From Agelas oroides (taxonomy: Eukaryota > Porifera > Demospongiae > Agelasida > Agelasidae): DNA of 64,000 nt. The stretch is taken from the NCBI GenBank assembly GCA_949130485.1, contig OX422204.1, positions 3,720,015 through 3,784,014 on the forward strand, read 5' to 3'. Below are positions 15,085 through 64,000 of the stretch, one piece after another; position 1 is the first letter of the stretch; every line of letters starts with the position of its first letter. The translations under genes and the position numbers were made by a program. The notes below the pieces were generated by a model. The model did no database searches. It saw only the letters and a program-made list of their open reading frames with translations, and was not told the origin of the DNA.

Positions 15085-37008
<21,924 letters not shown>

Positions 37009-38012: not shown

Positions 38013-41000
38013 TTATGTTGTACCAGCAACTGCTTTCGGCTTAGAGGTAAACAGTGATTTGAAGCCCTTCTTTTTGCTGTGAGACCCCTGCAAAGAGAAA
38101 AATGGTATAGTGCTTGCTGTATACTGAATTTTACACTATATAGCTAGGTGAAGAGCAACACATTCCAACTCATACAGTGAGTGCCCCAATAGTTTGGGAC
38201 ATGCATGCAAATTGCTTTATCACACTTTTTTGAGCCAATCACATCTTTGAAAATGTATACCTAGGTTTTACAATGCCTTATTAAACTTCCAATCACCATG
38301 ATATGACAGCATACCTTGCCATCTCCTAAGCTTTCTGGGCTATAGGTCTCCAAGGAGAGTTGCAATCTTCTCACTTGGTCGTTAACGGTCTCCTCTTCCA
38401 GTGGTAGTGACACACCCATACTTTCTTCTACATCGGCTAATGAACTCTCAGAGCCTGAGCTCCCTAGGGACGTGTTGACAGCTACACTGTCTGCATCCTC
38501 TTGCTTTCTACTGTCCTGCCGTGACGTTTCAGTGTTCATGTCTCTCTGTGACTGTAGTTGTGCTGCTATTAAATCCCCTGGCTCTGCTATTGTTTTGACC
38601 GTGCCGACAGAATTTACTCCATCGTCCCCTGTGTTTACATCTTCTGACACATTGAAGCTCTTCTTTCCAAAGTGGGGATGATTTTTTGGTGGTTTTTCTT
38701 TCTTTTTTCTGGACTTCTTTTCTCTTTTCCTTCTGTGTTCCTTGCTAGTTTTGCTTTGTGTTGTACTCTCCCCCTTTGTTGTCAAGCTCTTCTTGATTTC
38801 TGAAGGCTTGTAAGGGTGGAGCCCCTCTAAATCTAGATCAGTTGTGGAAGAGAGGGCACCATAGTTTTCACCATATCCTTCTAGATACTGTTCCATGTCA
38901 TTCTTTAGCACACTACTGACTCTTCGCAGGGCACGTTTTTTAGCGGGTTTTTTCTCTCCTGTTACTACAATTGTTGGAATCGGAGGCAACAAAGCCTTCT
39001 CCTCCTCTACACTTTCTTGTGCAGCATTATCTCTCACTGTTGAGGTTCCATCAGCAGGAAGCTTCTGATTGTTTCGTGCATATTCTGGAGGGCATCCATT
39101 TGCTGAATCTTGCTGTTCATCTTGTGAGACGGACTGATCTGGTTCATCAGTACCGTAGACATGCAGTGGAGATGGATACCAATGTGTGACATGTGGCACA
39201 CTCCTTACAGCCTCTTGAGGAGATGTTTTAGTATCGGCAGGACTTTCAGATGTTTTGCTTTTAAGCTGTTCAGGTGCTGGGTTTTGGTGCAACTCAGGTA
39301 TTCTCTCTTCAGGCATTTCGGCTTCAGGTGTTTGAGCAGATTGGGATCCAGTCTTTAGAAGAGTTTCTGGCATTATTGGGAACTCAGGCTTTCTTGCTTC
39401 AGGCTTTCTTGCTTCAGGCTTTTGGGCTTCAGGCTTTTGGGCTTCAGGCTTTTGGGCTTCAGGCTCTTGGACGTTAGGTGTTTGGGCTTTAGGTGCTTGA
39501 ACTTTAGGCTTTTGGGCGTTAGAAGTTTTGGCTTCAGGCTTTTGGGCGTTAGGAATTTGGGCTTCAGGCTTTTTGAGTGCTTCAGGCTTTTTGAGTGCTT
39601 CAGGCTTTTTGCGTGCTTCAGGCTTTTTGCGTGCTTCAGGCTTTCTGAGTGCTTCAGGCTTTTTGAGTGCTTCAGGCTTTTTGAGTGCTTCAGTGCTATG
39701 ATACGGTTCAGAGGGCTCTGACTTTGTGTCTGGAACTTCAATGTTCAGCTCACTGCAAACCAACAAGGAAACCAAATCACATATCAAGTAAATACCTAGC
39801 CTCCTACCCAGGCCACATAGAGGAAGAAAGTCAGTTTACTATCTCGCATGTGGCCAACATGTGAACATGCCACAACATAGAGAACTTTTACATTACTCAC
39901 TAAGAAGTACTGTAAGCATGGTTTGTAGTTGTGCAGAAAGGATGCTGTGTTATGTGTTACTATTGTGGTAGTCGTGCATGGAGGATGCTGTGCTTGCATG
40001 GAGGATACTGTGCCAGTGGTAGTCGTGCATGGAGGATACTGTGCTAGTGGTAGTCGTGCATGGAGGATACTGTGCTATATGGTTGGGGGAGCCCAAACCG
40101 CTTATGGGTGCTTACCAGCGGAAGTTAAGGAAAGTTATTCCGAGCTGAAGAAGGCGTTGAAGGATACTGTGCTAGTGGTAGTCGTGCATGGAGGATACTG
40201 TGCCAGTGGTAGTCATGCATGGAGGATACTGTGCTAGTGGTAGTCGTGCATGGAGGATACTGTGCCAGTGGTAGTCGTGCATGAAGGATGCTGTGCTAGT
40301 GGTAGTCGTGCATGGAGGATACTGTGCTAGTTGTGCATGGAGGATGCTGTGCTAGTGGTAGTCGTGCATGGAGGATGCTGTGCTAGTGGTAGTTGTGCAT
40401 GGAGGATACTGTGCTAGTGGTAGTCGTGCATGGAGGATGCTGTGCCAGTGGTAGTCGTGCATGGAGGATACTGTGCTAGTGGTAGTCGTGCATGGAGGAT
40501 ACTGTGCTAGTGGTAGTCGTGCATGGAGGATACTGTGCTAGTGGTAGTCGTGCATGGAGGATACTGTGGTAGTCGTGCATGGAGGATACTGTGCTAGTGG
40601 TAGTCGTGCATGGAGGATACTGTGCCAGTGGTAGTTGTGCATGGAGGATACTGTGCTAGTGGTAGTCGTGCATGGAGGATACTGTGCCTGTGCTAGTTGT
40701 GCATGGAGGATACTGTGCCAGTGGTAGTCGTGCATGAAGGATACTGTGCCAGTGGTAGTCGTGCATGAAGGATACTGTGCTAGTGGTAGTCGTGCATGGA
40801 GGATACTGTGCTAGTGGTAGTCGTGCATGGAGGATACTGTGCCAGTGGTAGTTGTGCATGGAGGATACTGTGCTAGTGGTAGTCGTGCATGGAGGATACT
40901 GTGCCTGTGCTAGTTGTGCATGGAGGATACTGTGCCAGTGGTAGTCGTGCATGAAGGATACTGTGCCAGTGGTAGTCGTGCATGAAGGATACTGTGCTAG

Positions 41001-43669
41001 TGGTAGTCGTGCATGGAGGATACTGTGCTAGTGGTAGTCGTGCATGGAGGATACTGTGCCAGTGGTAGTTGTGCATGGAGGATACTGTGCTAGTGGTAGT
41101 CGTGCATGGAGGATACTGTGCCTGTGCTAGTTGTGCATGGAGGATACTGTGCCAGTGGTAGTCGTGCATGAAGGATACTATGCTAGTGGTAGTCGTGCAT
41201 GGAGGATACTGTGCTAGTGGTAGTCGTGCATGGAGGATACTGTGCTAGTCGTGCATGGAGGATACTGTGCTAGTGGTAGTCGTGCATGGAGGATACTGTG
41301 CCAGTGGTAGTCGTGCATGGAGGATACTGTGCCAGTGGTAGTCGTGCATGGAGGATACTGTGCTAGTCGTGCATGGAGGATACTGTGCTAGTGGTAGTCG
41401 TGCATGGAGGATACTGTGCTAGTGGTAGTCGTGCATGGAGGATGCTGTGCTAGTGGTAGTCGTGCATGGAGGATGCTGTGCTAGTGGTAGTCGTGCATGG
41501 AGGAAGGATATTGTGCTAGTATTTATTAATGTAGTCATGCATGAAGAATACTACGTAGCTAGCACACAAACGTACGCATAGGTAACTTTGCTTGCAAATC
41601 CTGGACCTATAGAAGATGGGGGTTTCTTTCTCCCAGAAGCTGCGGATGATTCTATAGACATGTAGAGCAGTAACACAAGTAAAAAGCACCTTAGTACATG
41701 TGTAGACAAAATTTACGTGTGCAGGCTGTGGTAGGCATGGTTTTAAAATCGTGAATCTGTAAACACTGGACTACATGACAAGACTACTGGACTAGACTAC
41801 TCAACAGGGCTGCTGGACTGGATTATTGGACTACTCGACTGACCTTATATTGTAAATCTGAATCTAAAAATCTTATGAAAGTAGCTCCTTGGAGTGTATA
41901 GCACAAGAATAGACTGAGAGTTGGCCTTACTATAATCTACATACGAGATACTCTCATGACCAAAATGTTGTGTCTAGAATTCTAGAGCAAGTAGTAGCTA
42001 CATTATGTACACATAGGTGTATGGTAGAACTGGAAGGGTCTAACAAGGGGACTTAGCATGGGGATGTCCCAATTGTCAGTGATCTGGGCACAAAACTCTT
42101 AGTATATATGAAGAGAAGGTTATCTATTTTTGGTGACAACCAACAGCTCTATACTCATGGATACTTTCATGCAGGAGTATTGGCTTACCTGGGCAGGAGT
42201 ATTCAAATATGACATGCGCACTACAACAGTTCATTTTTTGACTTTTCACTGCCTCAGTTGAGAGAACTGTCACAGGGGTATTGATAGCTAGGGATGCTGA
42301 GGATGGCCAGGGGCAATCGGAAACATGTCAGACTCTACATAATTTGCACATGTGCCGCTTTTGAGTGACAATGAACTTGAAAGCTTCAGTACCTGAATGA
42401 AAAATTTGAAGCAATATTCTAAAGACTAGCGCAGACACTTTAAGTAAACCATATCCATATCCAGTTGTTGCTTGGATAACCAGTACTGCACTTCGGTAGA
42501 GATGCAAAACAAAGGGCCAAGTCTCAGTCTAGTCTTGTGTGCAAACAGCTATTTTCAGTAAATACTGATGTTTTTGGTGAGAGAGTGAGAAATGAAAAAA
42601 ATCCGAGATGCAGTTGGGATTCGAACCGAATTTTTTATTTATTTTTTCCGTGGATTCATTAAACATCAGTATTCATGCGTGCCTACTGTTGTTTACAGTA
42701 AATAACATCAAGCCTCCATATTTTCAGTAAGTCTCCTAGTGAGATAAGGTATGTTATTAGATTTAGATTTGCAGGTCAGTCCAGTAGTCCAGTAGTCCAC
42801 TCCAGTGTTTACAGGCACCCTTATGTAATCATTGTCTAAATATGGATTGTGTCACCCACCTTTAGTAACCACAACGTGGAAGGTGCGTTTTTTCCTTCCA
42901 TTCTCATTGGTGACAATGCATGAATACTCCCCACTCATGTTCACTGAGGCCTGCTGAATCTGCAGCATTCCTGGGTCAGAATGTGCCATGTTGGGAGCTG
43001 GATAATGACAACATTGGAGTGAGGGAAAAACTGATCAAGAGGATTTTGGAAGCTGTGATGATTGAAATATAGGAAGCACAGTGTTTTCATAAAAAGCATG
43101 TGGACAAAGGAATGCAGGTAACTCACACTTTGTTTATCTCTACATACTTTCAAGCAATGATTATTAAGGGAGTTTAGATATTCATGACAATAGCCAATGA
43201 ATGTATCTGACATGAGCTGTTTATCCCAAATTTAGTAACAGACATGACCAACCCTAGTGGCTATTTACAAGCGTATAGTCATCAACTGACTGAAGGCAGC
43301 TGCTGTGTTTTGTTTTTGGACCCTTATTGATCCATATTTGCCCAGTATTCATCCAGTACAAGGTTACATACACATTTATATATGTAGTGGTATGGCTTTG
43401 CCTGGTGCTAGGCTTAACTTATGGATCAGTTAATAGCTTGATTTATATCATCAGTGCAACACACTAATAATTGGGATTCTGCACTTCTAAGTTAATATCC
43501 GCTGCTTGTACCATTATCAGGGATCTTCTTGCCATCCTTGAACCACACATATGTGGGAGAATCCCTAGTGTCGGCCAGACAGGTGAGTAGCACAGAGCTC
43601 CCAGCAGAAACTTTCAGATGGGAAGGGCTTGCAGAAACAATTTCAGGGACACCTGTTTATGTTACGCAT

Positions 43670-47511: not shown

Positions 47512-50500
47512 ATGGCATCTGGTGCCTCTACCCCTTCCTCTGCTTGTGGTGATACTCTGAGACACTTTATCCAGCAGCAGTGGGAGCTAGCAGGCCACCT
47601 GTTAGAGAAGGCCCTGCAGCTTAAGCAGGAAAGACACATTCATGGCATGCAGAGGATTGAGAGAAAGATAAGGGCAGAGAGGGGCTTCCTTGAGTCGGTA
47701 TGCTAGTGAGGCATCTGATATTTCAGCTGGTTAATTCTTTGTATTTTCTAGTGGCATGCATGTTTTGAGTTGGATGTTTGCTTTAATTCTTCATACAGCA
47801 GAGAAAAAAAAATGGAAACATCAGATTTTAGATTTGACAACGTCCTAAGCATCTCATTATGTATGCATTGTGTTTGCAGAAGATTGACTACAAATGTCTT
47901 CCATTTATTGACAGCTTCGCTCAGGCAGTGTGGAAGTGAAAGACCATCATGTCAGTAGCAGTAACCTGTTGCACCTGGAGGCTATACTGCACATCTGTGA
48001 ACAAGCATCCCAGGTATATGTCCCTGGCTGTCTGCATATGGAAGTATGGTTTAGCTTCTACTTTAATACCAACTGAAACACATCTTGACGAAAGGCGCCA
48101 CCAAACTAATAGAGCAGCAAGCATTTAGCCATTCATTTCTTATATTTTCCTCCACTTGGTAAATCAGAAAAGTGGTGTGTAGGAATATCTTGTACAAGAG
48201 ACTGTTGGTAATGCAACTTTCTGTATGTGGGTTTGACTTTTCAGATCTTCATCTGTTGCTATACACAAGTAGACTTTGTATGAGCATGAGGGTAATATCT
48301 CACAAGGTTGCTGTTTCGCTATATCTGAGATGTTGGCCAAGTGGCAAGTATACAGTAACAAATTGTGGCATGTGCAAAATGAACTTGTTCTAAGCAACTT
48401 CTGGTAGTTTTTGGTGCCTTGTTCTTGTTGTACATGCAGCTACAGGTAAAGCAATATGCATTCTAAGGCAGAAATTCAGATAGTTTTTACTATCTACACG
48501 TTGTATCTAAACTATGGTAAACATCAGAAGAACTGTATTTCAGACACATGTAATGGATACAATTGCCTTACTTTAGTATGGCAAATGTGGCATGAAGTGG
48601 CACTTTGAATAACCCACACAATGTTTGACAATGTTAACATAATTCGTTTGTTGTTTGTTAATTCATTCTAGGTGGTAGCAGTGCAACAGTCCTTCTGCTA
48701 CATACCCTCCACTGGCAGTCACTCTCAGTCAATTCTAGCGGATGTGGTAGCCAGTGAAGGAGGGTCATGGGTAAAGGTGTTTGCCAGAAATAGACATGCC
48801 CTGCACCGCAAATGGCTAGGTTGGTAATCTATTCCGGTTTCCCCTCCAAGTTCTTGAGGAACGCACCTCTACCATCTTATAACTACGCTCCATTGAGAAG
48901 TGTGCCATATTCTGTTTCACAGCAAGTTTGATTCCACCTCTCCAGGTGATGGTAGTTTTGGAGACAAGTCAGTGACAGATCTAGCCAAGAACTTTTCAGA
49001 AGCAAGCCAGCAGAATCGTTGCTTGTTTGAGCCTCCACAAGTTATGTTTGCCTTTTTTGATGGAGTCACACAGAGTTTGGCAGGTGCATGGGAGACCTTA
49101 AGCATGTGTATCTCTGCAGTAATGTTTGTAGCTTCATACTCAACACTGTGTACAAGGGCCAATATTGATTACATGTGCAAAACTGAGGATAGGATTAGTT
49201 AAAATAAAAATGTATGGCGAATACACATGCACTATATTTATATAGTGCATTATTGTGCAGTATACATTGTACCTCATCGTTGAATGTTTAAAAGCAGTCA
49301 TTGTACTTTTTACTGGTGTTGTTATCCCCCTCTTCCCTTCAGCTGAGTTGCAGACTTTTGGTATTGTCATTGTTGGTCCAGTGTTCAGTGATGACAGCAC
49401 AGAACCTGCCCCTACCCCTCTAAAAGTAGCTGCAATGTTCAGACAGGGTAACAGAGCTGTCCAGCCTGTGCCTCTGAAGCTACCCACAGTAAAGTTACCA
49501 CACTGGTAAAGTTGTCATTTGATGTTCATTTCTTGGCCCAAAGCTAATTAATAAGTGAAGTTGTTTTCTAAACTTCAGGCTACAGATGGCTAGCTACAAT
49601 TTATTACCAGGCATTCAGTGAACAGTACAGCACTAGTTTAGTTGCTAACACACAGACACATGCATGAACAATCAATGAACCACATCTTCTTAAAAAGAAG
49701 AGAGCTAGGCCTAGACGTTATGCATGCCTACCTGTTGCTATAGGATAAGGTCAGCCAACTGACTGTATTTTGTGCATGAGATAGCAGTCCCCATCTCCCG
49801 GTCACCCCAGTGCAGCTGATGAGGCCTGGTATTGGCTGAACATGCACAGTGGGTGACCTTGTATAACATCTTTTTTTTCAGTGAGATGTGGTTCATTGAT
49901 TGTTCATGCACACTTGCTGCTAATCGTTTAGTTGTTGCCTGTTCATATTTCTCTTCAGCTCCACAGTCAATCTGGATGTGTCTTGCATGCTGGCCTGGGT
50001 GTCCACCCTTACCCATGGTGGAGCTGGCAGCAAACTTGATGTGAGCTTTTGAGCATCATTGTTCTTTTGTATAGAAGCGGATCAGGAGAGAGATGGCTAC
50101 TTGAACAGACTCATCATGAGAAGAAGTTGATCTTGATAATCTTGTAGACAGTGCATTGAAACTGAGGTCTGGCACATGCAACTGAGGTTATCTGTTCTTT
50201 TGTGCAAGGATCCAATATTGGAGGATCAAGCGCAACAGGAGCGGTTGGAACCACTATGGCCTAAACTGCAAGCTGCTACAGAGGGTATATGCATGTATAC
50301 ATCAATCCTTGTTCTGTGCAGATTAGTGTAATACAGCGCAGAATTCTCATTGGTGTTTACAGGAAAAGGACTGATTGCTTGTAAGACTGCAGTGCAAAAC
50401 TTTACCAGTATTCTTGAGACTGTGGGAGGACCAGAGGAGAAAAGGAGAGGCAGGTTGTTGGCTACACTAAATGTGAAGTGTGCTTTTCTCCAAGTGACTA

Positions 50501-51717
50501 TGTGTGCAGCATTAGCCTCACAATATATGCATCATGAATCCTATGGTAAGTGATCAGTTTGGTATATACCCCTACCTCCATGCAGAGATCTTTTAGCCAG
50601 GGTAAAAGTTGTTGAAGATGCACCATCTGATCGGGCGATGAAGCTAGAGCTAGGTGGGAAAATCAAACCAAGATCCAAGGTAACTATATTTATATAGGAG
50701 AACTGCATTAATTTTGTAAATGAAGCAAGTACTGGTAGTTTACATTGGCCAACTATAACATGGAAAGTATAAAAGATCTCTAGCAATTTACAGACTCAGG
50801 ATATGTACCTTTACTAACTTTATAAGTAACTGCTCTGTACAACTACAGCATTGCATTGCATTCTTCATATAATGCAGTACAAAAATTGTTGTCTGTGTAA
50901 CAACCAGATGAGAAAAATTAAGACTTTCTCCAGCAGAATGTAGCCTTGTTCCCAGGCCTCCCCATTTTTACCTTCCGTTTGTGTTCACAATAATACACGT
51001 GTATTATTGTGAACACAAACGGAAGGTAATTATTGTGAACGTGTATTATTGTGAACGCAAACAGAAGGTAAAAATGGGGGAGGCCTTGGAACGAGGCTAA
51101 GCAGCATGTGCATGCTAATACAAACAGTTGTCAAGATACTACTCAACAAGTGTAAAAAAACTTATAGGGAGTGGGTGTATATATTGATATATTTTTATAC
51201 CTTAAACCATGTTTTGATCGGATAGTAAGTGTATGATTTTGAGGGTTTACATTCAAGTAGGGTGGGGGTCATGCAATTCTGAATGCTTTCTGTTCCTACA
51301 ATTGGCAAATACCTGTATCTCCCTATGCCATGATATTTCAATCTATATTTAAGGTAATATTTGGCACTGGAGATGCACTACGGGTAGTGACGTTGACTGC
51401 TAATGAAGCGTTTGTCCGAGCTGCAACTCACCAGGTATGAACATGACTTGTGACAAAGAATTATTTGTGTCTACTTAGTTTTTTGTGTATTTAATGTTGT
51501 ACCCTGTGCTATACATTGTGCTGTCAGAGCAAGTACCACAAAGATCTACTTCCAAAACGTAACAGTAGGTGTATGCCACAGAGCAGGTATAAAATTGTTC
51601 ACATGCACCTTTCACACTACCCTCTCCATGTAGGGAGTTTCATTCAATGTGTTCCTTCATTCATCACGAGCACTCACAGAACAGAAGCAGGCTGCCCATC
51701 ATGAAACTAGAACGTAA
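47512..51717 (+). CDS. C7orf25: UPF0415 / DUF1308 protein, C7orf25 homologue
   Basis: A conserved, poorly characterised soluble protein of animals, with related DUF1308 proteins in plants. The exons are 47512-47697, 47915-48013, 48672-48823, 48923-49083, 49343-49505, 49959-50040, 50209-50284, 50363-50453, 50586-50679, 51354-51434 and 51634-51717 (TAA), giving 422 residues; human C7orf25 has 421. Diagnostic stretches are ILADVVASEGGSWVKVFAR, FGDKSVTDLA, NLDVSCMLAWVSTLTHGG, ETVGGPEEK, VIFGTGDALRVVTLTANEAF and VFLHSSRALTE. The donor at 50454 (CAG GTTGTT) is weak, but it gives exact length agreement with human in that segment; the stronger GTAAGT at 50547 would insert about 30 residues. The 3' half is duplicated at 60657-62811. 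The function is unknown; I add none. Confidence 0.93.
49661..49910. mobile_element. MITE family C, full-length reference copy
   Basis: A 250-bp element with inverted ends TGCATGAACAATCAATGAAC and GTTCATTGATTGTTCATGCA, in the C7orf25 intron between 49505 and 49959. Inner blocks CCTAGACGTTATGCAT and CAGTGGGTGACCTTGTATAA recur in the fragments at 9206, 21073, 26456, 36388 and 60657. Confidence 0.9.
50941..51099. repeat. Foldback element in C7orf25 intron (copy A)
   Basis: The ends are TAGCCTTGTTCCCAGGCCTC and GAGGCCTTGGAACGAGGCTA, with inner arms TTTACCTTCCGTTTGTG and CACAAACGGAAGGTAA. The centre CGTGTATTATTGTGAACAC is doubled. The equivalent in copy B (61804-61904) is about 58 bp shorter. Confidence 0.85.
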
Positions 51718-53362
51718 AGATTGCATGTATGCTAGTGATGATTGTTCTGATGTACATGTGTACAACATTGTGTGTCCAACATAGTATAATCTAAATTATA
51801 GCGAGCCATGCATCTAGACATGCATGTACAAACATTTTGTATGAATTTTAATACAACTTGAGTTAAGTGACATAAAGTTTGAAATTTACTTGAACCGCCC
51901 ACATATATAGTCTACATGTGTACAACATGTGAAAAACATGTTTCTAAAGGAAAGAAGCCACCCCACACTTGTAAATGTCAACTAAACAGAAAATTTCTGG
52001 ACAAGAGGATGATTTCAGCAGATGCACACAGGCGCAGGTTTATTTCATAGAGTGGAGGTGCACATTTCAGCATTATGTGGACGCAACATCGATCATTATA
52101 GTGATGACCGGCATGATGTGGGTGTGTACTGCAAAATGCACAAAATAGAACTGCTTCAAGTACTAGTGTGCACTAAAATGATTGCACTAAATAATTGTGT
52201 GACACTAAAGCCCCGCTTACACTAGCACATAAACAGTTAGGCCAAACTACATCCGTTATGTGGTTTACAGAATGTGGTTTCCAAAGCCACATTATAGGGA
52301 TGTTTATAGCCTCGTTCCCAGGCCTTCCCAAATGTCCAGTTTTTGATCACTTGCAATATGCAAAAATGCAAGCAATCAAAAACTGGATGGTGGAAAGACC
52401 TGGGAACAAGGCTAGGGTGTTCATACAGCTACCCTAAACCCTAAAGTGCTATTGTAAATGCTTAAGACACTCTCTGAATTTAATCTCTATGCATAATCCA
52501 CTGATTGTATCATACTCATTAAAATAATCTAGCTATAGAAGAGTCATAAGTTTTGAGTAGTAAGTGAAGGTGGTTTAGCTTGTGTAGGGAGTATTCAATA
52601 CACTATCTCATGTTTGTCTAGCTGGCTCATGGTCAATCTGGCTACCTGGGTAGTTACAGTGCCTCCAGTCCTCTGTTGAGTTGTTACATTACATTATAAA
52701 AAGCTGTCATAACAACAGTAATATTGAAACTGTAAACAGTTTGTGGTTTACCAAGAGAGACCTGTAAGATAATATAAACTCTGAAAGTACCTTCACAACT
52801 AAAACCTTTTGAGAATATCATGTTATTCAATTGACTGAAGTTTATATACAGACCACTGTCTTCTCACATTTCGTGTGCAAATATTGGAGCAAATCTGTCC
52901 AGCCATTGAGGCAGCCACCTCTTTAGTATGGCCCAAAAGTGCTGGCTAATCCTGTGCAAGGTGACACGCCTAAAGCAGCCCCCCCCCCTCCTCTGTAGTG
53001 GCCAAAAAGTTGTTAGACTTACCACAAATGTTTTTCATCAGAGAGTGGTAGACCAACTATACAGTTGATGACACCACACTCATACCTGCACATAAACTGT
53101 GACTACTACTGCAAACTACTGGTAATATTGCAAACAGTGTGTGTGTTTTCCACTGAGAATACTGGACAGTGGGCAACTGTGATGTCACATGGCATGAACC
53201 ATAAGCACTGAGGTACATGTACTTTGCTAGCTGTTAAGTAATACATCATCGACTATAAAATTGCTAGTGTACTCCCTTTCACAAACTCAGTAGTCCAAAT
53301 TCATGTAACTGTGTACTAAACTGGTGTTGCCATATGTATGTAGCAGGTTGCTGTGCTCAAAG
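51718..53362. other. Intergenic space, C7orf25 to the membrane-protein gene
   Basis: It contains the C7orf25 3' flank (duplicated at 62812-64000) and one foldback element at 52307-52414. I see no open frame with recognisable protein content. Beyond 52862 the sequence is unique in the window and should include the promoter of the next gene; no TATA box stands out. Confidence 0.6.
52307..52414. repeat. Foldback element, copy A
   Basis: The ends are TAGCCTCGTTCCCAGGC and GACCTGGGAACAAGGCTA, with inner arms CCAGTTTTTGATCACTTGCA and TGCAAGCAATCAAAAACTGG. The copy B partner at 63482-63578 lacks part of the left inner arm. The inner arm matches the element at 773-858. Confidence 0.88.
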
Positions 53363-56300
53363 ATGCAGTTACTCTACTGGACTGTCATCACTGTCTTCAG
53401 TGTTTCAGTTGCTAGTGTGGTGAGTGAGTCACAAGTTGGTGGATACAGAGCACGCATCATTGTCCCTTCACCCACACCTGATTGCTGGAGCCCATCATGT
53501 CTCACGTGGTCACAATGTCTGGCAGACCCCGCACAGTGCTTCACCTCTCACACCACTGTCACCATGCTAGATGGGGAATATATCCTCCATGAATATCTCG
53601 AAGTGTATGGTGTTGTGTCACTCTCCATATATGGAAATAAGTCTGAAGTGAATGGTAGTGCAAGGGAAAATCAGGTGGTCATTAACTGTGAGTACAGAGA
53701 GGGTGGAATTGGGATCACGGCTGTGGCAAACGTTTCTCTCTCTGGAATAACAATGGTTTACTGTGGAGTGCTGGGGGTAGACAGACGCCTCGATGACAGG
53801 GATTTAGTATTTGTATATTTCGCACTGCATATACAGGAAGGGATTAACGTCAGCCTCAGCTTTATATTCATTACCAACAGCACTCAAATTGGTCTGCTGT
53901 GCATTAATCTACTGGGTACATCAGGCATTCAGGACTCTGTGTTCACCCGCAGTAATTACAGACTGTTGGAGAAGTACATGCAGGGAGAAACAGAGTGTTC
54001 CACAGATAGCTGGGAATGTCGTGGCACTAATGTATTGGTTCTGTTTTTTAATCCATTGGCCATTGACATTGTTCGTGCTAATATCTTTGGATCTAACTTT
54101 ATTGTTGAAAGAACAAACATATCTTATGGTGTGAACTTGAGACCACAAGACAGCTGGTTATCAGTTAGTGCAGGGATTGTAGTTCACCTCCATTCAGGGT
54201 TGGATTATGATGTACGCATTGTCATTTCCAAGTGCAACATTATGAACAACATTGATAAGACTACTGCCAATTTATATATGGCAATTGGTAGTAACTCTAC
54301 TGTTCTGATCGCAGACTCTAATTTTACTTGTGCAAACAGACTGACAGAAGATGGCCCATTAGAACTGGTACCTGTGGTTTATCCTAATGCTGGAACATTA
54401 ACGCTTCAAGTCTCTGATGAGTATGATGATACAGCTGCAATTAATGTAGAAATTGTTATGAATAAACTTTACATAGCTGAGAATGTTGGAGGTGGCCTGC
54501 TTGTTAATTGTCTTCCACAGCTTCCTCAAAGTTATATTCAAATGAAACTGAAGAATGTTGAAGTAGTACACAATTACCTTGGTCGAGATAATTTCCAAGA
54601 TAAACGCCGGCTTTATGGTTTCGTTGTTCGGTTTGAAAAGGGTGCTATAAATGCTGGTGGTGTGTATACCTCCCTAGAATCAGTTGAAATAAGCAACAAT
54701 GTTCTTGTATTCGAAAATGAAAACACATGGAATCAGCAACTTTTCTTGGATTTAGAAACTACTTGTGCCTTAACAATAATGAATATTGAAGTGCACTTTA
54801 AACAGACTAAATTGTTCAACAACAGTATGCCTGCGGTACTTGGTTATAATAGCAACCTGCATTTTCATGGAGCCAATGTTTTCAAAAACAACACAGGAAG
54901 ACAATGTGGAGGTGCACTAGTTCTCAGAATGAACAGTCACATTTACTTACATCGAGGTACTCAAGTTTACATTTTAGAAAACACAGCACTCAAGTATGGA
55001 GGAGGAATATGTGTGGATGGTGGTTCAGTTCCTGAAACATTTGATGTATGCTTCTGGCAAATAGCGGATCTTGACATTCTTTATAACAATGATACTTTTG
55101 TGTATCTGGAAGGGAACATAGCACCGATAACAGGATATGCAATATATGCTGGATGTGTGGCAGATTGCTATACCATAATTGGCAATTCCAGAATCAGGAT
55201 TACGTCTAATAGGTCTCGTGCAATCTTTTCACGTGTGTTTCGTTTTAAATTCCCGAACATAACTTTCAGCACTTGGTATCAAATAAGTTCACGCCCATTT
55301 AAAATCTGTTTTTGCTATCCTGGGCCAGAGCTTGTATGTGATGAGACTGTGGTGCCTAGTATTAGTGTCTACCCTGGACAGACATTCAACATCTCAGCAA
55401 TAGGAATGGGGATTGGAATTTCACCAGCAGTTGTTAGGAGTAGGATCAGCGGCAAACATAACATCTTCCCTGAACTTCAAAGCTTGGGTAATGCATGTGA
55501 ACCTCTCAACTACACAATCCTGGCTCCTGAAAACGTATCTGGGATCCGTGTGCAGCTGACGGTAGGAGGACATTATGTTAACTATGGTACGATAAAAAAT
55601 CTTAACGTTACCACCCTCAGGTGTCCTCTGGGCTTTGTTCTACGAGGATTTAAATGTGAGTGCCATCAAATGTTACAAACAGCCTCTGTCCGATGTGACA
55701 TCAACACTCAGAGATTCACAAGGTCAGGCTCTGTGTGGATTGGCATGGGGTCTGATGAGGAGGGACTCCTCACTCACATGCACTGTCCTAATGCATACTG
55801 CAAACTGCAAGAGACTGATCTCAACCTCACTAGTCCAGATGTACAGTGTGCCTTTGGTCACTCTGGAGTTCTTTGTGGAAGTTGTGAATCAGGTTTAGCT
55901 TTGATGCTGGGTTCATCCAAATGTCAGTACTGCTCCAATATATACCTGCTCTTAATACTCCCATTTCTTGCCGTTGGTGTGCTACTGGTCATAATACTGG
56001 GCAGAGTCAATCTCACAGTGGCCTCAGGAACAATGAATGGAGTGATATTCTATGCCAATGTTGTGAAGGCAAGTAGCAATGCACTCATTTCTAACTCTGT
56101 ATCCAGATACTTTTTGATCCTCTTTGCATGGCTGAACCTTGACTTGGGCATAGAAACCTGCTTCTTTAGTCACCTTGACATGTTCTGGAAAGTCTTCCTA
56201 CAGTTTGCCTTCCCCCTCTACATCTGGCTACTGGTTGCTGCCATCATTCTCCTCAGTAGATACTCAACTGTAGCAGCTAGACTAAGTGGTAGCAACTCAG

Positions 56301-57151
56301 TCCCAGTTCTAGCCACCCTCTTCCTCCTCTCATATGCCAAAGTCCTTGCCACAATCATTGTTGCCTTCTCATTCACATCTCTAGAGGCAGAGAAGATTAG
56401 TCCTCTTGTGTGGCTGCATGATGGGAACTTGAGGTTCCTGCAGGGAAAGCACATAGCCTTGGTTGTGGTCTCCATTCTGTTTGCCCTATTCTACATTATC
56501 CCTCTTACCCTACTCCTGCTGTTTGCTCCAGTCTTGCGGAAGGCACATAACCACAGGATAGTGAGGCTGGTTCAGATGTTGAAGCCTCTACTGGATGCCT
56601 TCCAGGGACCCTACAAGGATAGGTTTCACTGGTGGCCAGGACTGATGCTGGTTATAAGAATCATACTCTTAATTGCACTAACTGCCAATACAAAGTACGA
56701 TCCAAGACTCAGTGCTCTGTTAGTGGGTGTGACTGCCCTTCCTTTGGCTCTTCTTTCATATGGTGGAGTGTACAAGAACAAGCTACTGAATCTTCATGAG
56801 ACTGCACTGAATACAAACATGATAGTATTTGTATTATGGTCATTCTTCAACTACAGTTCATATGGAAGCAAGGCCCAGTTCACAAAGCAGCAGCAAGCTA
56901 CAGCCTACACCATGATCAGCATCTTCTATGTCCTCTTCATGGCTGTCCTGGTCTACCATGTTAGCAAGAAGATCGCAGACCTGGGCATACCTCGGTACCT
57001 CTTCCACCTCCTCAAGAGACAAAGTGAAACAACTAATGATGTTGGAGAGACAGAGTTGAGAGAGAGACAGGGCTCAGGCTGTGCTCCAGTACCTGCTCAA
57101 CTTCCCACTGTCACCTTTGTGGAGCTGAGAGAGCCCCTCCTCACTGATTAG
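53363..57151 (+). CDS. Large single-exon membrane protein: beta-helix-like ectodomain plus multi-pass membrane region
   Basis: An intronless 1262-residue protein. The first ATG of the frame is at 53363; upstream in-frame codons are non-ATG, and starting here puts a hydrophobic signal peptide (YWTVITVFSVSVASVV) at the N terminus. Residues about 25-750 form an extracellular region with many N-x-S/T sites and recurrent short hydrophobic/Asn-rich turns typical of right-handed parallel beta-helices. A Cys-rich module follows (about 754-860): CPLGF, CEC, HCPNAYC, then CGSCESGLALMLGSSKC. About eight or nine membrane helices occupy 860-1220, with NLTVASGTMNGVIFYANVV, AWLNLDLGIETC and FQGPYKDRFHWWPGL between or within them. 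The cytosolic tail is about 45 residues. I know this layout from demosponge predicted proteins, where it is a large unnamed family. A receptor or sensor role is only a guess. Confidence 0.85.
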   Translation: MQLLYWTVITVFSVSVASVVSESQVGGYRARIIVPSPTPDCWSPSCLTWSQCLADPAQCFTSHTTVTMLDGEYILHEYLEVYGVVSLSIYGNKSEVNGSARENQVVINCEYREGGIGITAVANVSLSGITMVYCGVLGVDRRLDDRDLVFVYFALHIQEGINVSLSFIFITNSTQIGLLCINLLGTSGIQDSVFTRSNYRLLEKYMQGETECSTDSWECRGTNVLVLFFNPLAIDIVRANIFGSNFIVERTNISYGVNLRPQDSWLSVSAGIVVHLHSGLDYDVRIVISKCNIMNNIDKTTANLYMAIGSNSTVLIADSNFTCANRLTEDGPLELVPVVYPNAGTLTLQVSDEYDDTAAINVEIVMNKLYIAENVGGGLLVNCLPQLPQSYIQMKLKNVEVVHNYLGRDNFQDKRRLYGFVVRFEKGAINAGGVYTSLESVEISNNVLVFENENTWNQQLFLDLETTCALTIMNIEVHFKQTKLFNNSMPAVLGYNSNLHFHGANVFKNNTGRQCGGALVLRMNSHIYLHRGTQVYILENTALKYGGGICVDGGSVPETFDVCFWQIADLDILYNNDTFVYLEGNIAPITGYAIYAGCVADCYTIIGNSRIRITSNRSRAIFSRVFRFKFPNITFSTWYQISSRPFKICFCYPGPELVCDETVVPSISVYPGQTFNISAIGMGIGISPAVVRSRISGKHNIFPELQSLGNACEPLNYTILAPENVSGIRVQLTVGGHYVNYGTIKNLNVTTLRCPLGFVLRGFKCECHQMLQTASVRCDINTQRFTRSGSVWIGMGSDEEGLLTHMHCPNAYCKLQETDLNLTSPDVQCAFGHSGVLCGSCESGLALMLGSSKCQYCSNIYLLLILPFLAVGVLLVIILGRVNLTVASGTMNGVIFYANVVKASSNALISNSVSRYFLILFAWLNLDLGIETCFFSHLDMFWKVFLQFAFPLYIWLLVAAIILLSRYSTVAARLSGSNSVPVLATLFLLSYAKVLATIIVAFSFTSLEAEKISPLVWLHDGNLRFLQGKHIALVVVSILFALFYIIPLTLLLLFAPVLRKAHNHRIVRLVQMLKPLLDAFQGPYKDRFHWWPGLMLVIRIILLIALTANTKYDPRLSALLVGVTALPLALLSYGGVYKNKLLNLHETALNTNMIVFVLWSFFNYSSYGSKAQFTKQQQATAYTMISIFYVLFMAVLVYHVSKKIADLGIPRYLFHLLKRQSETTNDVGETELRERQGSGCAPVPAQLPTVTFVELREPLLTD

Positions 57152-57879: not shown

Positions 57880-58140
57880 CCAGCTGCATCTGTAGCAGGG
57901 AAGATCGCCCACATGCAATCAAACAGCAAATTCAAAGCCACTTTGGTGGTTGCAGCTAGCATGTCCCAAGGCGAAGGTTTAGCACCCCTTCTAGCCAAAT
58001 TGGTGCATCAGGAGATGTCTTAACTGCAGCCTGAGCTGTGGGAGGTGAAGCTAAAACAGACATATATATGCAGCAAAAGTGATTTCCCAACCAACGTAGG
58101 ACCCCTGTATCAAAATTAATGTGCTGGTGTAGGTGCAGCC
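57880..58140. repeat. Dispersed repeat, copy 2
   Basis: It shares blocks in the same order with 5160-5645, including the segment ending TTGGTGCATCAGG, then CTGCAGCCTGAG, then CCAACGTAGGACCC and TGTGCTGGTGT. The 57-bp array follows directly and may be an internal expansion of the same element. Confidence 0.55.
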
Positions 58141-58220
58141 GTGGCTGGTGCCTTTTGACCAAAAACCTAGATAAGATCCACTTTATGCCTCATTGTAAGG
58201 TGCAGTCACTTCCATGTATT

Positions 58221-58676
58221 GTTTCAAGGAGTAGTCTCAATGTGAGGTTCAGCTTGTGCTCACTGGTAGCATGCAGTGTTTCAAGGAGTAGTCTCAACGT
58301 GAGGTTCAGCTTGTGCTCACTGGTAGCATGCAGTGTTTCAAGGAGTAGTCTCAACGTGAGGTTCAGCTTGTGCTCACTGGTAGCATGCAGTGTTTCAAGG
58401 AGTAGTCTCAACGTGAGGTTCAGCTTGTGCTCACTGGTAGCATGCAGTGTTTCAAGGAGTAGTCTCAACGTGAGGTTCAGCTTGTGCTCACTGGTAGCAT
58501 GCAGTGTTTCAAGGAGTAGTCTCAACGTGAGGTTCAGCTTGTGCTCACTGGTAGCATGCAGTGTTTCAAGGAGTGGTCTCAACGTGAGGTTCAGCTTGTG
58601 CTCACTGGTAGCATGCAGTGTTTCAAGGAGTAGTCTCAACGTGAGGTTCAGCTTGTGCTCACTGGTAGCAATCTCA
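58221..58676 (+). repeat. 57-bp minisatellite, 8 copies
   Basis: Units start GTTTCAAGGAGTAGTCTCAA at 58221, 58278, 58335, 58392, 58449, 58506, 58563 and 58620. They are nearly identical. Because 57 is divisible by three, one frame stays open on each strand (19-residue periodic translations), but no gene structure supports coding. Confidence 0.95.
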
Positions 58677-59916
58677 CCTCTCAGTTGTCATGTAGCTATT
58701 CCTTATGATTACAACTTGGTACCTTTCTTGTGCTACTGGAGATTCCTAGGGTTCAGAGCCATGGCAGAATGTACAAGTTCTGGGTCAAATTTCTCATGTT
58801 TGGTCCAGAATTCTGGGTTGTGGTGGATGAGATGCATGGATGGGCAGTTGGACTGTCATTCCCTTAGGAATGGTCACTCCATTGATTTCAATGGTCTTCT
58901 CAGCAAGACCTGAGACATTGTAATGAACAAACTGCAGTTAGAATCCAGTGCAAGATAGCTTTGTTGTGCTGAGGTCATTGCCATCTCAGTTGTGATGGCT
59001 TGTACAGTTCTGGTTGAATGTTACACACTCTGTCACTGCACTGCTGACATAACAGTTATTGGTAGAATTTATCCACCAATAAGAGGAAACTATGTTACTG
59101 TCTGTCACTAACGTCAAGTCAGAGAACAAAATGATCAGGAATCACAACTTGAAATCCTGTACGCTTTAGAGCTTCACATAAGACCCCTCACAAACTGACT
59201 GTTGTTGACTAGTTACAGGTCTTTATGTGTTTGTTCTGTCATATATAGCTGTGTATGTAAATGTTGTGTGTGGGTGTGATTATATGAGTATCACCATAGC
59301 AAGTATACAAATATCATGAGTTTGATGCTGTCTATATTGTTACAAGTGCGCAACACGAGTAACAATGTCAACGGCAACAAACCAGTGATATGTTTTCTGG
59401 TATAGCTTGGTATTATGGTGACAATGATTTATCATTTTGCATTCTCAGACGCAGTGCGTGACTTGCAGTACCTGATATGGATTCTCATGTGACTTGTAGT
59501 AAAAAAAAATACACTTTTTATACGTCTAACTCACGTGAATGTATGGGAGTAAATCAGGAAGCCTTGCAGCTGCATGCAGTGATATTTATATAGCAAGTGT
59601 GTAGAGCAGGGAGGAAACTTCAGTAGACACACCTGATAAATCAAAATGACATCCGGACTTTAATTATAATTGAGCTAAAATGCAAGCTCTGCAGAAACAT
59701 GGGGTGATATGAAATACATTCTGCATGACTGTATCGTGACTTTCTTCCAAATTTGGATGTAGATTCCCTTTTTGTCAAAATCCCACTTGGTTAACGTTTG
59801 ACCAACTGGGGTAGTAAGGACTGGCATAATTATACTGATCGGACTGGGTATAGAATTAAGGTCTATATGGCACAAAAATAATAATGTTATAGCATACAAG
59901 CTGCAAAAATTGAATG

Positions 59917-60656: not shown

Positions 60657-61803
60657 TTGTATAACATCTAGGCATCCTTTTTTCAGGGAGACGTGATTTA
60701 TTGATTGTTCATGCACACTTGCTACTAATCATTCAGTTGTTGCCTGCTCATTTGCTATTTCTCTTCAGCTCCACAGTCAATCTGGATGTGTCTTGCATGC
60801 TGGCCTGGGTGTCCACCCTTACCCATGGTGGAGCTGGCAGCAAACTTGATGTGAGCTTTTGAGCATCATTGTTCTTTTGTATAGAAGCGGATCAGGAGAG
60901 AGATGGTTACCTGAACAGACTCATCATGAGAAGGAGTTGGTTTTGATAATCTTGATGACAGTACATTGAAAATGAGGTCTGGCACATGCAACTGAGGTTA
61001 TCTGTTCTTTTGTGCAAGGATCCAATATTGGAGGAGCAAGCGCAACAGGAGCGGTCAGAACCACTATGGCCTAAACTGCAAGCTGCTACAGAGGGTATAT
61101 GCATGTATACATCAATCCTTGTTCTGTGCAGATTAGTGTAATACAGCGCAGAATTCTCATTGGTGTTTACAGGAAAAGGACTGATTGCTTGTAAGACTGC
61201 AGTGCACAACTTTACCAGTATTCTTGAGACTGTGGGGGGACCAGAGGAGAAAAGGAGAGGCAGGTTGTTGGCTACACTAAATGTGAAGTGTGCTTTTCTC
61301 CAAGTGACTATGTGTGCAGCATTAGCCTCACAATATATACATCATGAATCCTATGGTAAGTGATCAGTTTGGTATATACCCCTACCTCCATGCAGAGATC
61401 TTTTAGCCAGGGTAAAAGTTGTTGAAGATGCACCATCTGATCGGGCGATGAAGCTAGAGCTAGGTGGGAAGATCAAACCAAGATCCAAGGTAACTATTTA
61501 TATAGGAAGAACTGCATTAATTTTGTAAATGAAGCAAGTACTGGTAGTTCACATTGGCAAACTATAAAACTTGTTTGTCATGGAAAGTATAAAAGATCTC
61601 CCAGAGTTTGAGCAATTTACAGACTCAGCATATGTACCTTCATAAGTAACTGCTTTGTACAACTACAGCATTGACTCCAAGCAACAGAATGATGTGAATG
61701 GAATAGAATGGAATGCATTGTATTTTTCATATAATGCAGTACAAAAATTGCTGTCTGTGTAGCAACCAGATAGGAAAAATATAAGACTTTCCCCAGCAGC
61801 ATG

Positions 61804-61904
61804 TAGCCTTGTTCCCAGGCCTCCCCTGTTTTTACCTTCCATTTGTGTTATTTTGAACACAAAAATGGAAGGTAGAAATGGGGGAAGGTCTGGGAACGAG
61901 GCTA
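61804..61904. repeat. Foldback element in the C7orf25 duplicate (copy B)
   Basis: The same element as 50941-51099, with ends TAGCCTTGTTCCCAGGCC and GGTCTGGGAACGAGGCTA but a single short centre. It shows that foldback length changed after the duplication, either by loss here or gain in copy A. Confidence 0.85.
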
Positions 61905-62412
61905 AGCAGCATGTGCATGCTAATAGAAACAGTCAAGATACTACTCAACAAGTGTAAAAAAACTTATAGGGAGTGGGTGTATATATCGATATACCTTAAA
62001 TCATGTGTTGATCAGATAGTCAGTGTATACTACAGTATGATTCTGAGGGTTTACATTCAAGTATAGGGTGGGGGTCATGTAATTTTGAATGCTTTCTGTT
62101 CCTACAATTGGCATATACCCGTATCTCCCTATGCCATGATATTTCAATCAATATTTAAGGTAATATTTGGCACTGGAGATGCACTACGGGTAGTGACGTT
62201 GACTGCTAATGAAGCGTTTGTCCGAGCTGCAACTCACCAGGTATGAACATGACTTGTGACAAAGAATTATTTGTGTCTACTTAGTTTTTTTGTGTATTTA
62301 ATGTTGTACCCTGTGCTATACATTGTGCTGTCAGAGCAAGTACCACAAAGATCTACTTCCAAAATGTAACAGTAGGTGTATGCCACAGAGCAGTATAAAA
62401 TTGTTCACATGC

Positions 62413-62736
62413 ACCTTTCACACTACCCTCCCCATGCAGGGAGTTTCATTCCTTCACACTACCCTCCCCATGCAGGGAGTTTCATTCCTTCACACTACCC
62501 TCCCCATGTAGGGAGTTTCATTCTTTCACAGTACCCTCCCCATGTAGGGAGTTTCATTCTTTCACACTACCCTCCCCATGTAGGGAGTTTCATTCTTTCA
62601 CACTACCCTCCCCATGCAGGGAGTTTCATTCTTTCACAGTACCCTCCCCATGTAGGGAGTTTCATTCTTTCACACTACCCTCCCCATGTAGGGAGTTTCA
62701 TTCTTTCACACTACCCTCCCCATGCAGGGAGTTTCA
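62413..62736 (+). repeat. 36-bp minisatellite, 9 copies, each carrying a 3' splice site
   Basis: Nine units with ACCCTCCCCATG at 62425, 62461, 62497, 62533, 62569, 62605, 62641, 62677 and 62713. Each unit contains the pyrimidine tract, the CATGCAG or CATGTAG acceptor and the first bases of C7orf25 exon 11 (GGAGTTTCATT). Copy A has exactly one unit, so the expansion happened after duplication. Confidence 0.96.
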
Positions 62737-62811
62737 TTCAATGTGTTCCTTCATTCATCACGAGCACTCACAGAACAGAAGCAGGCTGCCCATCATGAAA
62801 CTGGAACGTAA

Positions 62812-64000
62812 AGATTGTATGCTAGTGATGATTGTTCTGATATACATGTGTACAACATTGTGTGTCCAACATAGTGTAATCATGTTTCTAAATTATAGCA
62901 AGCCATGCATCCTACACATGCATGTACAAACATTTTGTATGATTCCTGCTCAGGTTGATGATTTTAGCAGATGCAATACGCAGAAACAGGGATTTTTGGA
63001 GGCTACAAATGCTAAGAGTTTACAGGAATTGTAGTGAAGACGTCTGTCTAGACTAAAAGAGGCTGCTTTTGGCCGTATAATTTCAGCATGTATATATAGT
63101 CTACATGTACATGTGTACAACATGTGAAAAACATGTTTCTAAAGGAAATAAGCCACCCAACACACGTAAATATGTCAACTAATTTCTGGACAAGAGGATG
63201 ATTTCAGCAGATGCACACAGGCGCAGGTTTATTTCATAGGGTAGAGGTGTACATTTCAGTATTATGTGGACACAACATCTATCATTATAGTGATGACCGG
63301 CATGATGTGGGTGTGTACTGCAAAATGCACAAAATAGAACTGCTCATGTGCACTAAATGATTGTGTGACACTAAAGCCCCGCTTACACTAGCACATAAAC
63401 AATTAAACCAGTTAGGCCAAACTACATCCATTATGTGGTTTACAGAATGTGGTTTCCAAAGCCACATTATAGGGATGTTTATAGCCTCGTTCCCAGGCCT
63501 TCCCAACCGTCCAGTTTGCAATATGGAAAATGCAAGCAATCAAAAGCAGGATGGTGGAAAGACCTGGGAACGAGTCTAGGATGTTCATACAGCTGCCCTA
63601 AACTACCTAAAGTCAGTAAAGTGCTAGACTAAGTGTAAATGGGACACTCTCTGAATTTAATTTATATGCATAATCCACTGTATCATACAAATAATCATGT
63701 AGGTAGCTATAGAAGAGTTGTATCAATTGGAGTTTCTAGTAGTTAGTGAAGGTGGTTTAGCTTGTGTAGGGAGCATTCAATACACTATCTCATGATTGTG
63801 TAGCTGGCTCATGGACCATCTGGCTACCTGGGTAGTTACACTGCCTCCAGTCCTGTGTTGAGTTGTTGCAGTAATTACATGATACAAGTTTACCAAGAGA
63901 GACCTGTAAGATAATAAAAACTCTGAAAGTACCTTCACAACTAAAACCTTTTGAGAATGTCAATTGAAACAACTGCATTTTTATACAGACCACTGTCTTC
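62812..64000. other. 3' flank of the C7orf25 duplicate
   Basis: It matches 51718-52862 with indels and contains the foldback element at 63482-63578. No gene is visible. The match reaches the last base. Confidence 0.8.
63482..63578. repeat. Foldback element, copy B
   Basis: Ends TAGCCTCGTTCCCAGGC and GACCTGGGAACGAGTCTA; partner of 52307-52414. The left inner arm has lost the TTTTTGATCACT part, so the hairpin is weaker here. Confidence 0.85.

What the first reader, a model, noticed from the sequence alone, without database searches (positions are those of the whole stretch)
53363..57151. Intronless beta-helix and multi-pass membrane protein of a sponge-type family
In a region where every other gene has 5 to 21 exons, a 3.8-kb uninterrupted frame encodes signal peptide, long N-glycosylated beta-helix-like ectodomain, Cys-rich stalk and 8-9 helices. 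It matches no vertebrate receptor class I know. Lack of introns suggests retroposition or ancient intron loss followed by family expansion; its position inside a tandem duplication fits ongoing expansion. This is my best candidate for an undescribed system: a surface sensor or self-recognition family.
Basis: partly seen in the sequence, partly recalled or inferred. Interest (0 to 1): 0.8.

Follow-up and report, generated by a model that had tools for sequence, protein, structure and literature searches.

The report
Large intronless sponge receptor-like family
This gene is one of a very large, unnamed family of intron-free genes in what is probably a freshwater sponge; each seems to join a variable beta-helix outside the cell to a conserved nine-helix membrane core, a design that looks like a sensing or recognition repertoire.

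Summary
Window 53363-57151 (+) is one open frame of 1262 codons: signal peptide, beta-helix-type ectodomain, Cys-rich stalk, about nine membrane helices, cytosolic tail. It is under purifying selection and is not a lone retrocopy. It belongs to a very large family in the same 259-Mb genome: 310 places encode the core motif AWLNLD(L/F)G (reversed control 0), and at least 95 distinct loci have uninterrupted frames of 1100 aa or more. In 21 aligned full-length members, stalk and membrane core are conserved (50-55% mean pairwise identity) and the ectodomain is not (29-34%). dN/dS is 0.12-0.35 in stalk and core, 0.47-0.75 in the outer ectodomain in 15 of 16 chosen pairs. Copies are clustered, recent ones share flanking DNA, and many are disrupted: duplication of DNA with birth and death, not retroposition. 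The nearby tandem duplication copied only the promoter and first 81 codons of this gene. My searches of family libraries, solved structures, prokaryote and viral contigs and papers found no description of the nine-helix core. I judge it a surface sensor or recognition receptor; ligand and signalling are inferred. AlphaFold2 without an alignment failed, so folds rest on profile matches and hydropathy.

The parts
53363..57151 (+). Whole single-exon coding sequence, 1262 aa plus stop
   Evidence: purifying selection
53363..53425 (+). Signal peptide (residues about 1-21)
   Evidence: hydropathy peak 2-21; also in the average of 21 paralogues
53426..55612 (+). Ectodomain, beta-helix type (residues about 22-750); fastest-evolving part
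   Evidence: Pfam on paralogues; identity 0.29-0.34; dN/dS
54815..55042 (+). Best beta-helix repeat stretch (residues 485-560: FNN, FKNNTG, GGAL, YGGGI), PMP-repeat-like
   Evidence: PF02415 at residues 535-551, 19.4 bits, just under cut-off; invariant N487, N510, G516, G517, G546, G547
55613..55936 (+). Cys-rich juxtamembrane stalk (residues 751-858); its end is the DUF7630-like module (residues 828-857)
   Evidence: invariant Cys 754, 765, 767, 778, 808, 813, 829, 838, 841, 854, 857; PF24633 weak here, over cut-off at 4 places of the genome
55937..56968 (+). Membrane core (residues 859-1202), about nine helices, N-out/C-in
   Evidence: averaged hydropathy and loop charges; 0.55 mean pairwise identity
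56126..56155 (+). Core motif AWLNLDLGIE (residues 922-931)
   Evidence: A922-G929 invariant in 21; 310 genome places
56528..56626 (+). Positively charged loop with KPLLDAFQGPYKD (residues 1056-1088), predicted cytosolic
   Evidence: 7.3 Lys/Arg against 2.0 Asp/Glu on average; invariant P1075, L1076, D1078, A1079, P1083, Y1084
57104..57148 (+). C-terminal tail motif PTVTFVELREPLLTD (residues 1248-1262), predicted cytosolic; possible sorting or adaptor motif (inference)
   Evidence: P1248 and E1257 invariant, L1259 and L1260 at 90% or more; same or similar ends in L040 and L043
49870..53604 (+). Source copy of the tandem duplication: DUF1308-matching exons, spacer, this gene's upstream region and first 81 codons (left edge approximate)
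60680..64000 (+). Second copy of the duplication (left edge approximate); goes on outside the window to about 65434, ending inside the gene at codon 81
   Evidence: L036

Best explanation
It is a cell-surface receptor of a large germline-encoded repertoire. The glycosylated beta-helix presents a variable face that binds external or cell-surface ligands. Binding is passed through the disulphide-rich stalk to the conserved nine-helix core, which signals or gates ions; the conserved tail motif directs trafficking or adaptor binding. Shown by tools: the domain order, the single-frame coding region, family size, clustering, constraint on stalk and core, faster ectodomain, frequent disruption of copies. 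Inferred: surface location, ligand binding, signalling by the core, role of the tail.
For: Signal peptide and extracellular N-glycosylation sites. N-out/C-in topology with a basic inner loop. Beta-helix profiles in family members. Core and stalk conserved, ectodomain divergent. dN/dS over 16 pairs that I chose: core 0.12-0.34, stalk 0.13-0.35 in the 13 pairs where it is defined, outer ectodomain 0.47-0.75 in 15 pairs and 0.34 in the saturated one; pN/pS above 1 in a few 40-codon windows, 321-400 in the window clade and 321-360 in the L024 clade among them. Very many copies, clustered: 57 of 100 listed places lie within 25 kb of another against a random mean of 10. Birth and death: of 36 loci, 21 full-length in one frame, 3 lacking the N-terminal part, 11 disrupted or split, 1 not assessable.
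Against: No expression, ligand or localisation data. Diversifying selection is not shown: regional dN/dS exceeds 1 only in the 30-codon N-terminus (4 of 16 pairs) and once, at 1.06, in residues 441-660 of a pair with a dS of 0.014. No match of the core to a known receptor or channel. Structure models were unusable. A conserved N-X-T site at 883 falls in a loop that the topology puts inside, helix 2 is weak, and the loop before helix 9 is slightly basic.
Confidence: 0.5

Rival explanations
1. Cell-cell adhesion or allorecognition proteins: beta-helices of neighbouring cells bind each other (self/non-self), and the membrane core is mainly an anchor or signals on contact.
For: Large variable family with a faster-evolving ectodomain, clustered with frequent disruption. 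Sponges show allorecognition (recalled).
Against: Hundreds of dispersed places fit a repertoire better than one polymorphic locus; no allele data were available; a pure anchor would not need a multi-pass core this conserved.
Confidence: 0.2
2. A channel or transporter family whose beta-helix is a structural or gating cap; expansion reflects dosage or specialisation for fresh water rather than recognition.
For: The core is the most conserved part and holds invariant charged residues in or near membrane segments (D927, K993, D1020, H1030, R1099).
Against: No Pfam channel or transporter family is listed for the 21 members; a cap would not be expected to diverge this fast. A weak MotA_ExbB match in L040 (13 bits, cut-off 22.9) was judged chance.
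Confidence: 0.15
3. A passenger gene of a mobile element, or a retroposed family, multiplying for its own sake.
For: Intronless, dispersed over many contigs, hundreds of places, many disrupted copies.
Against: Many divergent (about 30% identical) intact copies, purifying selection in the pairs tested; recent copies share ordinary flanks and 20 of 21 have no long A run after the gene. The loci were not searched for element proteins.
Confidence: 0.05

Closest known systems
Chlamydial polymorphic membrane proteins (Pfam PF02415 Chlam_PMP repeat)
   Same: FxxN and GGA(I/L) beta-helix repeats (motif names recalled): 18 of 21 family members match at E of 1 or less, best 3.9e-8; large, variable surface family
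   Different: No autotransporter barrel hit; signal peptide, stalk and about nine alpha-helices instead; in an animal-like genome
DUF7630 (PF24633), a 45-residue domain of unknown function
   Same: The end of the stalk matches weakly in 17 of 21 members (E up to 1) and 19 of 21 cores (E up to 10); over cut-off at four places of this genome, one of which (L043/L044) has the same domain order
   Different: Pfam models only this module; the window protein is under its cut-off (13.7 of 27 bits) and no Pfam model was found for the nine-helix core
Adhesion GPCRs
   Same: Large extracellular domain on a multi-pass core; large families (recalled)
   Different: No GPS/GAIN or 7TM hit, about nine helices
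TRP, polycystin and fungal Pkd2-like channels
   Same: Cys-rich ectodomain before a multi-pass core with a conserved basic-aromatic loop (recalled resemblance only)
   Different: No Pfam TRP, PKD or ion-channel hit among 21 members; the own-genome search with PF06011 did not complete
Expanded sponge SRCR immune receptors (PMC10855680, listing only; PMC4772301, passages)
   Same: Lineage-specific expansion of recognition proteins in sponges
   Different: Different domains; no SRCR hit here

Membership tests
Chlamydial Pmp | PMP beta-helix repeats | tested here: inconclusive
   Window protein 19.4 bits, cut-off 20.6; 18 of 21 relatives match at E of 1 or less, best 3.9e-8
Chlamydial Pmp | C-terminal autotransporter beta-barrel | tested here: not met
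   No such Pfam hit; hydrophobic helices instead
DUF7630 (PF24633) | Score over the curated cut-off | tested here: not met
   13.7 of 27 bits for the window protein
DUF7630 (PF24633) | Homology to a protein that carries the domain | tested here: met
   L043 (29.2 bits, but 24.0, under the cut-off) aligns to the window core, 30.7% over 381 aa, E 4.7e-45
GPCR, adhesion class included | 7TM family match, GPS/GAIN domain | tested here: not met
   None listed in 21 of 21 members at E up to 1 or for 21 of 21 cores at E up to 10
TRP or polycystin channel | TRP, PKD_channel or Ion_trans match | tested here: not met
   None listed at E up to 10 in 21 of 21 cores; a fold comparison was not possible
Unnamed beta-helix, stalk and nine-helix family of this genome | Same domain order and core motifs | tested here: met
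   21 full-length paralogues aligned; L040 and L043/L044 read
Retroposed gene | Homology ending at transcript ends; poly-A | tested here: not met
   Recent pairs share flanks: L009/L010 443 bp upstream, L020/L023 both sides; longest A run in the 455-500 bases after the last sense codon is 9 or less in 20 of 21 and 13 in one, L027
Retroposed gene | Target-site duplications | not tested
   No search made

The most novel reading that the evidence does not exclude
The family is the main germline-encoded recognition repertoire (microbial or self/non-self) of a nerveless animal, built on a membrane core that is a new class of signalling receptor or ligand-gated channel, with beta-helices used as variable binding domains in the way LRRs or Ig domains are used elsewhere.
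Probability: 0.2. Interest if true: 0.85.

Novelty: new variant of a known kind. Interest (0 to 1): 0.62.

Why it matters
A family of at least 95 loci with long unbroken frames in this genome has no name that I could find, and no Pfam model was found for its conserved core. If it is a recognition repertoire, it gives sponge immunity, symbiont recognition or allorecognition a concrete molecular candidate, and adds beta-helices to the folds used as variable receptor domains in animals. The mix of a constrained core, a variable ectodomain and an intronless coding region also makes the family easy to clone and test.

Tried and rejected
AlphaFold2 without an alignment: membrane part pLDDT 46.7, ectodomain 31.1; both too poor to compare with structure libraries, so no fold search was run. 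The structure tool's text admits only window sequences and loci from certain tools, so I did not hand it the paralogue alignment, which came from the fetch from genomes.

PDB sequence search with the single protein (none), the full profile (best E 0.48) and the core profile (best E 6.3): no credible match. NCBIfam none. Viral contigs by protein and by profile, prokaryote contigs by protein and by profile and phages by tblastn: no relative. The contig scans look for short back-translated peptides first, so distant relatives could be missed.

Weak Pfam hits judged chance: PEN-2, DUF454, DZR_2, Amdo_NSP_1-3, Vein_beta-barrel, Pectate_lyase_5, DUF4781, DUF7685, MotA_ExbB, EGF_LMN_ATRN.

Retroposition and expansion by the neighbouring tandem duplication were considered and rejected. 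The reading of the genome as the published Spongilla lacustris assembly was rejected: sizes are similar but not equal.

Rows dropped: L033:629-5920 (holds a run of N) from the alignment; the N-terminally short copies L012, L027 second copy and L031 and the disrupted copies from alignment and dN/dS; L039 and L041 from the tree. The 16 dN/dS pairs were chosen by me among the aligned members.
Full report
What is there. Window 53363-57151 (+) is a single ATG-to-stop frame of 1262 codons; the next longest stop-to-stop frame of the window has 524. A frame this long does not arise by chance, and comparison with relatives shows purifying selection. The protein has a hydrophobic N-terminus at residues 2-21, 20 N-X-S/T sites, a cysteine cluster at 754-857 and hydrophobic segments from 855 to 1202. 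Pfam gives only two sub-threshold hits for it: the Chlam_PMP beta-helix repeat (19.4 bits, cut-off 20.6) at 535-551 and DUF7630 (13.7 bits, cut-off 27) at 828-857. NCBIfam and PDB sequence searches give nothing.

The genome. The window is contig C22, 3720015-3784014, of a 259.3-Mb genome in 141 contigs. Contig lengths seen (C1 32.7, C2 26.2, C3 19.4, C4 12.6, C5 11.7, C6 10.5, C22 7.0 and C23 6.8 Mb among them) and the window's G+C of 43.1% resemble the freshwater sponge Spongilla lacustris (248.7 Mb, 23 chromosomes: 31.1, 22.2, 17.8, 13.6, 11.3, 10.4 ... 6.9, 6.8 Mb, 42.5-44% G+C; PMC12141999, outline and section 6 read) but are not equal to it. A freshwater sponge is therefore an inference; the species is not known.

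The family. A protein search of the genome gave 46 matches, with only 37 of 1095 candidates scored. I group them into 36 loci: 21 uninterrupted full-length genes of 1219-1358 aa, 3 lacking the N-terminal part, 11 disrupted or split, and 1 not assessable because of a run of N. I did not test each split copy for introns. A codon pattern for AWLNLD(L/F)G found 310 places, and the same pattern read backwards found none. This count includes disrupted copies and misses members with other residues, such as L043 (AFLNLDFG). A second protein search with the core of that divergent member scored 101 of 950 candidates: 79 of 101 matches lie in open frames of at least 1000 aa and 77 in frames of at least 1100 aa. 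Three of the 21 aligned genes are among these 77, so at least 95 distinct loci (77 + 18) have frames of 1100 aa or more, as the tool lists them. Of four places fetched from the 100 listed (items 11, 41, 61 and 71 of the list; 100 of 310 are shown), one is intact in a single frame (L040) and three are spread over several frames.

Anatomy across 21 paralogues, chosen because they are full-length in one frame. They share the order signal peptide, beta-helix ectodomain, Cys-rich stalk, membrane core, tail. Mean pairwise identity is 0.29 and 0.34 in the two ectodomain parts, 0.34 in residues 661-750, 0.50 in the stalk, 0.55 in the core and 0.33 in the tail. Scanned singly against Pfam at E up to 1, 18 of 21 match Chlam_PMP (best 3.9e-8), 7 of 21 Beta_helix PF13229 (best 7.7e-7) and 17 of 21 DUF7630 (best 0.0042); no 7TM, GPS, TRP or ion-channel model is listed, nor for the core alone at E up to 10. 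L040 shows only a weak Chlam_PMP match (E 0.37). DUF7630 passes its cut-off at four places of this genome, all in frames of 1146-1639 aa, and in 0 of 14 control genomes. One of these, L043/L044, shows a hydrophobic N-terminus, beta-helix-like repeats, stalk and core, at 30.4-38.5% identity to the 21 cores. The tail of the aligned members ends in a conserved P-T-V-T...E-L-R-E-P-L-L type motif, with exceptions such as the second copies in L025 and L026.

Topology. Averaged hydropathy gives eight clear segments and a weak one at 906-935. With nine segments that I placed by hand, loops before helices 4, 6 and 8 are basic (2.3/0.0, 7.3/2.0 and 1.8/0.1 Lys+Arg/Asp+Glu on average) and those before 3, 5 and 7 acidic (0.7/2.9, 2.1/2.5, 0.1/0.9), which fits N-out and C-in. 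The loop before helix 2 is neutral (0.1/0.3). Against it, the loop before helix 9, which should be outside, is slightly basic (1.7/1.3), though a glycosylation site lies at its edge (1163), and a site at 883 falls in a loop that should be inside.

Selection. I compared 16 chosen pairs; in 15 of them dS is below 0.8 outside the tail, in one (L025/L032) it is saturated. dN/dS of the core is 0.12-0.34. The stalk is 0.13-0.35 in 13 pairs; in three it is undefined (zero or saturated dS). The outer ectodomain (31-440) is 0.47-0.75, except 0.34 in the saturated pair. For the window gene against its two nearest relatives the core is 0.29 and 0.24, the outer ectodomain 0.75 and 0.60. Values above 1 are few: 1.06 in residues 441-660 of one pair with a dS of 0.014, and 1.05-3.46 in the 30-codon N-terminus of four pairs. 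Forty-codon windows with pN/pS above 1 are 5 of 62 in the window clade (1-40, three within 321-400, 1201-1240), 2 of 62 in the C4 clade (421-480) and 1 of 62 in the L024 clade (321-360). This shows relaxed or mildly diversifying change of the ectodomain, not proven positive selection. dS is lower in the core than in residues 441-660 in 14 of 16 pairs (for example 0.12 against 0.62 for L018/L023), which may reflect gene conversion; not tested further.

How it spread. Of the 100 listed motif places, 57 lie within 25 kb of another (random mean 10.2, maximum 22 in 500 trials), and 42 of the 57 have their nearest neighbour in the same orientation; the random model ends contig C3 at its last listed place. 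Recent copies share upstream or downstream DNA (L009/L010 443 bp upstream; L020/L023 419 bp upstream and 243 bp downstream; L011/L012 1000 bp downstream; L025/L026 over nearly all flanks compared), while the window gene shares only short upstream stretches (55-103 bp) with L010 and L011. In the 455-500 bases after the last sense codon the longest A run is 9 or less in 20 of 21 full-length members and 13 in L027. So recent copies arise by DNA duplication; the intronless state was probably already there in the ancestor. The neighbouring duplication (about 49.87-53.60 kb copied to 60.68-65.43 kb) carries DUF1308-matching exons and ends inside this gene at codon 81, giving a fragment 79% identical over residues 30-81, not a second gene. 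In the core tree the gene groups with L009 and L010 (100/100) and then with L015 (95/98, flagged as a possible long-branch join).

Explanation. The pattern of many germline copies, constant membrane core, variable ectodomain with glycosylation sites, clustering and frequent disruption is that of receptor repertoires. I therefore read it as a surface sensor or recognition receptor (0.5), with adhesion/allorecognition (0.2) and a channel or transporter with a beta-helix cap (0.15) as rivals. Steps not shown: surface location, ligand, signalling.

What is known. I searched the paper library for sponge beta-helix membrane families, Chlam_PMP or pectin-lyase-type names in sponges, single-exon expansions, DUF7630/PF24633 and allorecognition families. 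Judged from the titles and abstract starts listed, none of the papers shown describes this family; several searches matched many more papers than were listed, and DUF7630/PF24633 matched none. In the Ephydatia muelleri genome paper (PMC7385117) the passages seen on expansion name chemokine-binding and GABA-receptor clusters; the passages seen of PMC10176882 (Spongilla structures), PMC12716839 (GPCRs) and PMC4772301 (SRCR) do not mention it. Supplements, subscription papers and annotated sponge proteomes were not available. I recall, without a call, similar unnamed proteins in other early-branching animals; that is a lead only.

Noticed in passing
window 49870-53604 and 60680-64000 (to about 65434 on the contig): Tandem duplication carrying DUF1308-matching (PF07000) exons and the start of the beta-helix gene; the second copy lacks the rest of the gene.
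   Followed up: yes
window 28586-30300, 40051-41600, 7920-8660, 58099-58780, 62379-62810: Several large minisatellites with units of 26, 31, 53, 57 and 36 bp; the 26-bp array gave 59 overlapping copies of its reference.
   Followed up: no
A1 alignment, pairs such as L018/L023: Synonymous divergence is lower in the membrane core than in ectodomain residues 441-660 in 14 of 16 pairs, suggesting gene conversion of the core.
   Followed up: partly
L041:3396-4799 (minus strand): A member with a run of near-identical PMP-type repeats (SNVTITGNTTFNSNSATADGGG), suggesting ectodomain length change by repeat slippage.
   Followed up: no
L033:629-5920: A 1764-aa frame of a family member that contains a run of N; left out of the alignment.
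   Followed up: no
L028 and L030, just upstream of the ATG: Identical 26-bp stretch that holds a splice-acceptor-like CACAG; a 5'-UTR intron is possible in this subgroup.
   Followed up: no
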